Notes under the pieces: model-generated
Seen by the model: only the letters and a program-made list of their open reading frames with translations
Databases searched by the model: none
Told to the model about the DNA's origin: nothing
Made by a program: the position numbers and the translations under genes
Assembly (NCBI GenBank): GCA_009691855.1
Contig: SIAI01000021.1
Span: forward strand, 1-64,000
DNA length: 64,000 nucleotides
DNA from: Planctomycetota bacterium
Lineage (GTDB): Bacteria > Planctomycetota > UBA1135 > GCA-002686595
Direction: 5' to 3'
Shown here: piece after piece, positions 20,630 to 21,856 of the stretch
Numbering within the stretch: the first letter of the stretch is position 1
Layout: every line of letters starts with the position of its first letter

Positions 20630-21856
20630 TCACGCTTTTGTGCGGAATCGAGAGGCGACAAGCAAGAGCTCGTCGGCGAGGCGCTGCACGCCGTCGCGCG
20701 GCATGCACGCGCGCAGCGCGCTGGCCATGCTCGCGCGCTCGCGCTCGCCGGCGGGTCCGGCGAGGCGCGCCAGCGTGCTCACGAAGGCGGCGTCGAGCCG
20801 CTCCTCGGGCACGATGCGCACGCCCGCGCCGAGCGCCAGCGCGTTCTTCTCCTGGTGCCGATCCTTGTGGTGCGGATAGGGCACGACCAGCGCCGGGCGC
20901 GCGCGCGCGGCGACCTCGGCCAGGGTCGAGGCTCCGCCGCGACACAGCACCAAGGTCGCCGCGTCGAGCGCGCTGGCCACGTCGTCGAGATATTCACAGG
21001 CGCGGTAGCGTCCGCCCGCCTGTTCGTCGGCGCCTTCGCACGCGCGTCCCGGTCCGGTCTGGTGCAGGACCTGCAGACCGGCGGCACCCAGGGCCGCCGC
21101 GTGCGTGCGCAGGAACCGATTCAAGCCCGCGGCGCCCTGGCTCCCGCCGAGCACGAGCACCAGCGGCAGCTCGGCGCGGAAGCCCAGCGCCACGCGCGCG
21201 GCGAAGATCTGTTCCGCGCTGGGCTCGGCGCGCAGAAAACTCGGCGCCAGCGGCGGCCCGAAGCACGCGTGCCGTCCGCTTCCAAAGAACAAGCGGTTCA
21301 GAACGCTCGCCCGACTCGGGCCTGACGAGCCGGTGCTTGTTCTTTCCTGACCAGGCCCGCCTCCGGCGGGCAAGCGGCTCAGAGTGGCGCCCGGCGTTGG
21401 CCAGGCGTGCACGACGCGCTCGGACAGCCCGCTCAACGCGCGCGTGGCCCTGCCGGAGACGGAGTTGATCTCCAGCAACACCACCGGGACGCCCAGCGAG
21501 CGCGCGGCCAGCACGGCCGGCAGCATGGTGTAGCCGCCCAGGGCCAGCAAGACGTCGCTCGCGTGGCGCTCCAGCGCGCGGCGCGCGCGGTTCATCTCGG
21601 GCGCCGTGCGCGCCAGGAGCCGCAGCCAGGAGGGCGCGCCGCTCTCCGCGGGCTCCAGGCTCAGCACGACGCGCTCGAGGGCCAACGGGCCGAGGCGCTC
21701 GCGCGCCCCGGACAGCACGCGCTCCTCCACCGCGCGCCCGGCCGAGAACCACAGCACGTCCTCGGGCACCGCGCCGCGCGCACGCAGGTGCTCCAGCAGG
21801 TGCAGACCGGGGACCACGTGGCCCCCGGTTCCGCCGCCGGCCAGAGCGAGGCGCAT
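20630..21856 (-). CDS. murG: Lipid II synthase MurG with an in-frame palindromic insertion
   Basis: UDP-GlcNAc:undecaprenyl-pyrophosphoryl-MurNAc-pentapeptide transferase, acting on the cytoplasmic face of the membrane. The N-terminal GGGTGGHVVPGL, central LVLGGSQGAAGLN, and C-terminal LCRGGASTLAEV and HHKDRHQEKNA motifs match GT28 MurG. Length is 408 residues against about 355-370 usual. About 27 residues near 162-190 (around GQERTSTGSSGPSRAS) interrupt the linker between the two domains, where family members are short, and are encoded by a palindromic DNA element. The reading frame is kept and the catalytic motifs are intact, so the protein should work. ATG 21856 follows the small membrane protein gene by 11 nt. 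Confidence 0.95.
   Translation of the reverse strand: MRLALAGGGTGGHVVPGLHLLEHLRARGAVPEDVLWFSAGRAVEERVLSGARERLGPLALERVVLSLEPAESGAPSWLRLLARTAPEMNRARRALERHASDVLLALGGYTMLPAVLAARSLGVPVVLLEINSVSGRATRALSGLSERVVHAWPTPGATLSRLPAGGGPGQERTSTGSSGPSRASVLNRLFFGSGRHACFGPPLAPSFLRAEPSAEQIFAARVALGFRAELPLVLVLGGSQGAAGLNRFLRTHAAALGAAGLQVLHQTGPGRACEGADEQAGGRYRACEYLDDVASALDAATLVLCRGGASTLAEVAARARPALVVPYPHHKDRHQEKNALALGAGVRIVPEERLDAAFVSTLARLAGPAGERERASMASALRACMPRDGVQRLADELLLVASRFRTKA
21284..21371. repeat. Palindromic element inserted inside murG
   Basis: An 11-bp perfect terminal inverted repeat (AAAGAACAAGC at 21284-21294, GCTTGTTCTTT at 21335-21345) encloses nested pairs: GCTCG 21305-21309 with CGAGC 21326-21330, and CCCGA/TCGGG at 21310-21320. 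It is followed by a second hairpin, GCCCGCC/GGCGGGC (21355-21371). The AT-rich arms contrast with the GC-rich surroundings. The element coincides with extra residues relative to MurG family length. No second copy was noticed in the window. Confidence 0.65.

What the first reader, a model, noticed from the sequence alone, without database searches (positions are those of the whole stretch)
21284..21371. In-frame palindromic element inside murG
An AT-rich 11-bp perfect inverted repeat encloses nested hairpins within a coding region. The protein is about 27 residues longer than family members exactly there, in the linker between the two MurG domains. This resembles protein-coding palindromic elements such as those known from Rickettsia, which insert in frame into essential genes. 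I know of none described in this lineage.
Basis: partly seen in the sequence, partly recalled or inferred. Interest (0 to 1): 0.7.

Follow-up and report, generated by a model that had tools for sequence, protein, structure and literature searches.

The report
RNA-guided jumping-element remnant inside murG
A short piece of selfish DNA, a stripped-down relative of RNA-guided IS110 jumping genes that normally lands on gene stop codons, sits in frame inside the essential cell-wall gene murG and adds 33 amino acids without breaking the reading frame.

Summary
The palindrome is real, multicopy and mobile-looking, but it is best explained as something other than a Rickettsia-type element.

The element is window 21279-21379, minus strand: 99 bp net plus a repeated 2-bp AG. 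It adds 33 residues to MurG at a loop where 29 family relatives have none. About 60 copies of its right end and about 50 of its left end lie elsewhere in the genome, in ~80-, ~100- and ~300-bp forms.

Its ends match both ends of an IS110-family insertion sequence found in another family of the order (no shuffle in 5000 reached the scores). In seven IS110s, two stretches of the non-coding left end, placed like bridge-RNA guides, match each element's own target and own right end. The guide of this genome's IS110 reads CTCTG-AG, the sequence at the murG site.

Most copies with unique flanks sit exactly on TGA stop codons (13 of about 22); the sister-species orthologues examined end at the same position. 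In murG the motif falls in another phase, so the insert is read through.

So it is a non-autonomous IS110 derivative (MITE-like), probably mobilised in trans. I found no described IS110 MITE in the papers searched. The mechanism is inferred, not bench-tested.

The parts
20630..21856 (-). murG coding sequence (ATG at 21856; 408 aa)
   Evidence: Pfam PF03033 + PF04101; best PDB match E. coli MurG 1f0k, E=1.9e-36; only full-length hit in the genome
21279..21379 (-). MITE-like element including both AG core copies (net insertion 99 bp, 21281-21379; encodes MurG residues 160-192 SRLPAGGGPGQERTSTGSSGPSRASVLNRLFFG)
   Evidence: boundaries from about 48 aligned copies; insert absent in 29 relatives
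21380..21384 (-). left target CTCTG, next to the core
   Evidence: consensus YYCTG-AG at other insertions; equals the guide CTCTG-AG in the IS110 left end
21378..21379 (-). AG core, left copy
   Evidence: tandem junction TTTGGA-AG-CCGC fixes the core
21279..21280 (-). AG core, right copy
21338..21381 (-). left end (LE) homologous to the LE of the IS110 in G153 (L150), counted from the TGA that spans the junction
   Evidence: local alignment score 29, maximum of 5000 shuffles 16; blastn 28/33 E=1e-4 for another copy
21355..21371 (-). LE hairpin GCCCGCC-GGA-GGCGGGC
21278..21300 (-). right end (RE) TGAACCGCTTGTTCTTTGGAAGC, identical over 23 bp to the RE of the IS110 at G000:C73
   Evidence: zero mismatches; 61 genome hits of the RE pattern against 1 control hit
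21335..21345 (-). subterminal inverted-repeat arm (AAAGAACAAGC on the minus strand)
21284..21294 (-). subterminal inverted-repeat arm (GCTTGTTCTTT on the minus strand)
   Evidence: the L150 IS has the corresponding pair AAAGAACAGC / GCTGTTCTTT in its LE and RE (sequence)

Best explanation
The palindrome is a non-autonomous, MITE-like derivative of an IS110-family insertion sequence: the outer ~45 bp of the left end and ~24 bp of the right end joined by a short core. A DEDD recombinase with a bridge RNA made by a full IS110 acts on it in trans. The RNA's donor guide (TTTGGA-AG) recognises the element's right end and its target guide (CTCTG-AG) selects YYCTG-AG sites. The element inserts there with the AG core at both ends. 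In this genome such sites often span TGA stop codons, where insertion restores the stop and leaves the protein unchanged. In murG the motif falls in the phase CTG|AGC within a tolerant inter-domain loop, and the 99-bp net insertion reads through as 33 codons. Shown: repeat family, boundaries, end homology, guide matches, stop-codon sites, absence in relatives. Inferred: that the RNA is transcribed, mobilisation in trans, and that MurG with the insert works.
For: Multicopy family. MurG insert absent from 29 relatives. Boundaries and 2-bp AG core, with tandem copies showing the RE-AG-LE junction expected of IS110 circles. IS110 recombinase by Pfam PF01548 + PF02371 with an RE identical to the element's over 23 bp. 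A full IS110 in G153, 83% identical in protein, has the element's LE and RE. LTG/LT 47 of 49 and LDG/LD 54 of 56 matches across seven IS110s, with 2 and 4 of 5040 permutations as good. 13 insertions exactly at TGA stops with intact domains in rpoN, smc and others. The sister-species orthologues examined end at the same position. A 22-bp donor works for IS621 with bridge RNA in trans (PMC11208160), and a mini-IS with 29-bp LE and 16-bp RE moves for ISEc21 (PMC11187229).
Against: The only IS110 of this type in the genome appears frameshifted near the C-terminus, so present activity is doubtful. Its own left flank is a copy of the element, not a YYCTG-AG site. The predicted bridge-RNA fold is no better than shuffles (z 0.18), and I could not identify the right-side guides. 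The sister species G001 carries related short elements, but no IS110 with a matching guide was found in its 77%-complete assembly.
Confidence: 0.82

Rival explanations
1. A Rickettsia-type protein-coding palindromic element: a selfish repeat whose strategy is to insert in frame into proteins.
For: Palindromic, ~100 bp, in frame in an essential gene, open frame of 33 codons.
Against: Of about 22 copies with unique left flanks only murG is clearly in frame inside a gene; 13 sit on stop codons. Copy lengths vary in all three residue classes modulo 3. Ends and target are those of an IS110.
Confidence: 0.07
2. A REP-like chromosomal repeat that is only the target of an IS110, as QMITE2 is a target of IS1111 in Coxiella (PMC5896051), and not derived from it.
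For: IS110/IS1111 elements are known to insert into REP-type palindromes (PMC5896051; PMC1525189). The C73 IS lies directly behind a copy.
Against: Copies do not flank a split element. Both ends of the repeat match both ends of the IS in L150, in a genome where no other copies were found. The donor guide matches the repeat's right end.
Confidence: 0.07
3. An ordinary lineage-specific protein loop or an assembly artefact.
For: The loop length varies among relatives (several are clearly longer, L040-L042). The genome is a fragmented draft with repeats at contig ends.
Against: The DNA is 89-100% identical to some 20 other loci in unrelated contexts. The two halves of murG align as complementary parts of one protein and keep one frame, with murC/murB-like and ftsW/mraY-like reading frames next to it.
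Confidence: 0.03

Closest known systems
IS110 family (IS110 group; IS621 as the studied member) with bridge RNA
   Same: DEDD recombinase with Transposase_20 domain, long non-coding LE, short RE, 2-bp core at both junctions, guide-like stretches in LE matching target and donor
   Different: The murG element has no recombinase and no bridge RNA; core is AG rather than CT; sites are often stop codons
Bacterial MITEs (e.g. QMITE1/QMITE2, Correia elements)
   Same: Short, multicopy, non-coding, sharing ends with an autonomous insertion sequence, several size classes
   Different: No true terminal inverted repeats (the arms are subterminal); the parent is an IS110, for which I found no described MITE in the papers searched
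Rickettsia palindromic elements (RPE)
   Same: Palindromic and inserted in frame in an essential gene
   Different: Only one clear in-frame internal copy; the usual site is a stop codon; the parent IS is identified
REP/BIME repeats
   Same: Palindromic, 3' of genes, mosaic with other repeats
   Different: Larger, with IS110 ends and a defined AG-core junction; link to a RAYT transposase not tested

Membership tests
MITE / non-autonomous IS derivative | Shares both ends with an autonomous element | tested here: met
   LE and RE match the IS110 in L150; RE identical to the C73 IS over 23 bp
MITE / non-autonomous IS derivative | Multicopy, short, no transposase | tested here: met
   about 60 right ends; 80, 100 and 300 bp classes
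MITE / non-autonomous IS derivative | Terminal inverted repeats | tested here: not met
   arms are subterminal, hence 'MITE-like' rather than a classical MITE; IS110 group elements have only short subterminal repeats (PMC11208160)
MITE / non-autonomous IS derivative | Mobilised in trans by the parent recombinase | not testable with these tools
   needs a recombination assay
IS110 family (parent) | DEDD_Tnp_IS110 and Transposase_20 domains | tested here: met
IS110 family (parent) | Guide-like stretches in LE matching own target and own RE | tested here: met
   left guides only
IS110 family (parent) | Expressed, folded bridge RNA with right-side guides | tested here: inconclusive
   fold z-score 0.18; RTG and RDG not identified; expression untested
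Rickettsia palindromic element | Frequent in-frame insertion within ORFs | tested here: not met
   one clear case among about 22 unique-flank copies
REP sequence of a RAYT system | Associated Y1 (RAYT) transposase | not tested
   no search for PF01797 was run

The most novel reading that the evidence does not exclude
A bridge-RNA-guided IS110 lineage and its miniature derivatives have adopted stop codons as landing sites (guide CUCUG-AG), restoring the TGA on insertion so that host proteins stay unchanged. The murG insertion is the informative slip, in which the same guide hit a sense-phase match and produced a viable in-frame protein.
Probability: 0.55. Interest if true: 0.75.

Novelty: new variant of a known kind. 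Interest (0 to 1): 0.62.

Why it matters
If right, it adds non-autonomous elements to the bridge-RNA systems and shows natural donors as short as 70-100 bp. It also shows RNA-guided targeting of gene ends as a low-harm niche: insertion sites are predicted by a readable guide and can be checked gene by gene. It explains an in-frame coding repeat in an essential gene by a guide matching in another reading phase rather than by a protein-invading strategy.

Tried and rejected
I first took CTCTGAGCC in the C73 IS110 as its left end. Alignment with the G001 and G153 elements showed it is the target guide inside the left end. A pattern scan of genome contigs gave four single matches in unrelated taxa, treated as chance. 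Rfam found nothing in the window. Sister-species murG is missing from its assembly, so presence there could not be tested. RNA fold energy gave no support either way. Structure prediction was not used.

Full report
Observation. The inverted repeat AAAGAACAAGC / GCTTGTTCTTT is at 21284-21294 and 21335-21345, inside murG on the minus strand. The arm occurs 33 times in the 4.28-Mb genome and its reversed control never. A 101-bp query finds about 21 near-complete copies and about 25 partial ones.

The insert in MurG. An alignment with 29 MurG proteins of the family shows that the window protein has 33 extra residues (160-192) between HAWP..ATL and ..GRH..GPPLAP; no relative has them, though the loop length varies. 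The match to E. coli MurG (1f0k) is in two stretches that leave query residues 155-230, which hold the insert, unaligned. Both Pfam domains are present and no second full-length murG was found in the genome. In the DNA the net insertion is 99 bp, 21281-21379.

Family anatomy. Comparing copies gives fixed boundaries: target ..CTG, then AG, then the left end CCGCTTGCCCGCC...GTCAGGAAAGAAC, a variable middle, then the right end TGAAC..CTTGTTCTTTGGA, then AG again. Tandem copies show TTTGGA-AG-CCGC, which identifies AG as the core. Size classes are about 80, 100 and 300 bp. Pattern scans found 61 right ends (1 control hit) and 49 left ends (0 control hits). The murG copy is 100% identical over 99 bases to one at C65, so the insertion is probably recent. 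Among 61 genomes searched, full copies are confined to this one; a 65-70 bp form with the same ends occurs in the one other species of the genus searched.

Where copies lie. Of about 22 copies with a unique left flank, 13 have the TG|A of a stop codon exactly at the junction, in the orientation of the gene. The genes include rpoN, smc, a trmB-like methyltransferase, a glutaredoxin, a beta-lactamase-fold protein and an alginate-export-like protein. The four orthologues found in sister genome G001 (rpoN and the L121, L108 and L117 genes) stop at the same position without the element. In a rough count of CTGAG sites in the window, 6 of 53 were stop codons, or 6 of 27 outside called genes, so the preference looks stronger than mere avoidance of genes. 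That count rests on a crude gene caller. In murG the same motif is in another phase (ACT CTG AGC), so the insert is translated.

The parent. A recombinase at C73 has the IS110 domains and ends in the element's 23-bp right end; it seems frameshifted near its C-terminus and lies directly behind a copy of the element. A homologue in G153, another family of the order, is 83% identical in protein. Its left end aligns with the murG element over 45 bp (score 29, maximum of 5000 shuffles 16) and its right end over the last 14 bp (score 14, maximum 13). That IS also sits on the TGA stop of a 349-codon open frame. No other copy was found in G153.

Guides. Downstream of a GCCCGT-like anchor in the left end, each of seven IS110s carries a stretch equal or nearly equal to its own left target plus core; a second stretch matches its own right end plus core (47/49 and 54/56 matches; 2 and 4 of 5040 permutations as good). 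For the element of this genome the target used is the murG site, because the IS itself sits behind a copy. This is the layout described for bridge RNAs (PMC11208160). The predicted fold of the left end is not better than shuffles, and I did not identify the right-side guides.

Mechanism. The best-supported account is a non-autonomous IS110 derivative moved in trans by the recombinase-bridge RNA complex into YYCTG-AG sites. Precedents for minimal donors exist (PMC11208160; PMC11187229). Mobilisation, RNA expression and the function of the longer MurG remain inferred.

Novelty. MITEs, bridge RNAs and in-frame palindromic elements are each known. MITEs of IS110 origin and stop-codon-directed insertion were not found in the openly licensed papers searched, which is not proof of absence.

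Noticed in passing
L010-L036, just left of many copies (e.g. L126:203-326): A second palindromic repeat (GAGCAAGAATC...GTTGCTCACAC) often follows stop codons and carries the element at its end; a third (GGCTGTCGGAAAATCCC...) does likewise. Intergenic regions are mosaics of several such repeats.
   Followed up: no
L115, L122, L124 (G000:C50 ~35.5 kb, C69 ~15.4 kb and ~51 kb): A related element (CTGARCTTCTATTCG...) shares the right end TTTGGAAGC or a close variant but has another left end and also tends to follow stop codons; it also occurs nested in the ~300-bp form.
   Followed up: partly
L138 and L151 (G001, G028): Relatives of the IS110 are inserted in what looks like the AAAAAAG slippery site of IS3-type transposase genes, with guides TAAAA-AA and AAAAA-AA to match.
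   Followed up: partly
L141 (G001:C530): Another IS110 relative sits at the TAG stop of a 363-codon open frame, with guide TAGCT-AG.
   Followed up: partly
G000:C17:65678-65705: A further left end of the element lies just outside the window near the contig end.
   Followed up: no
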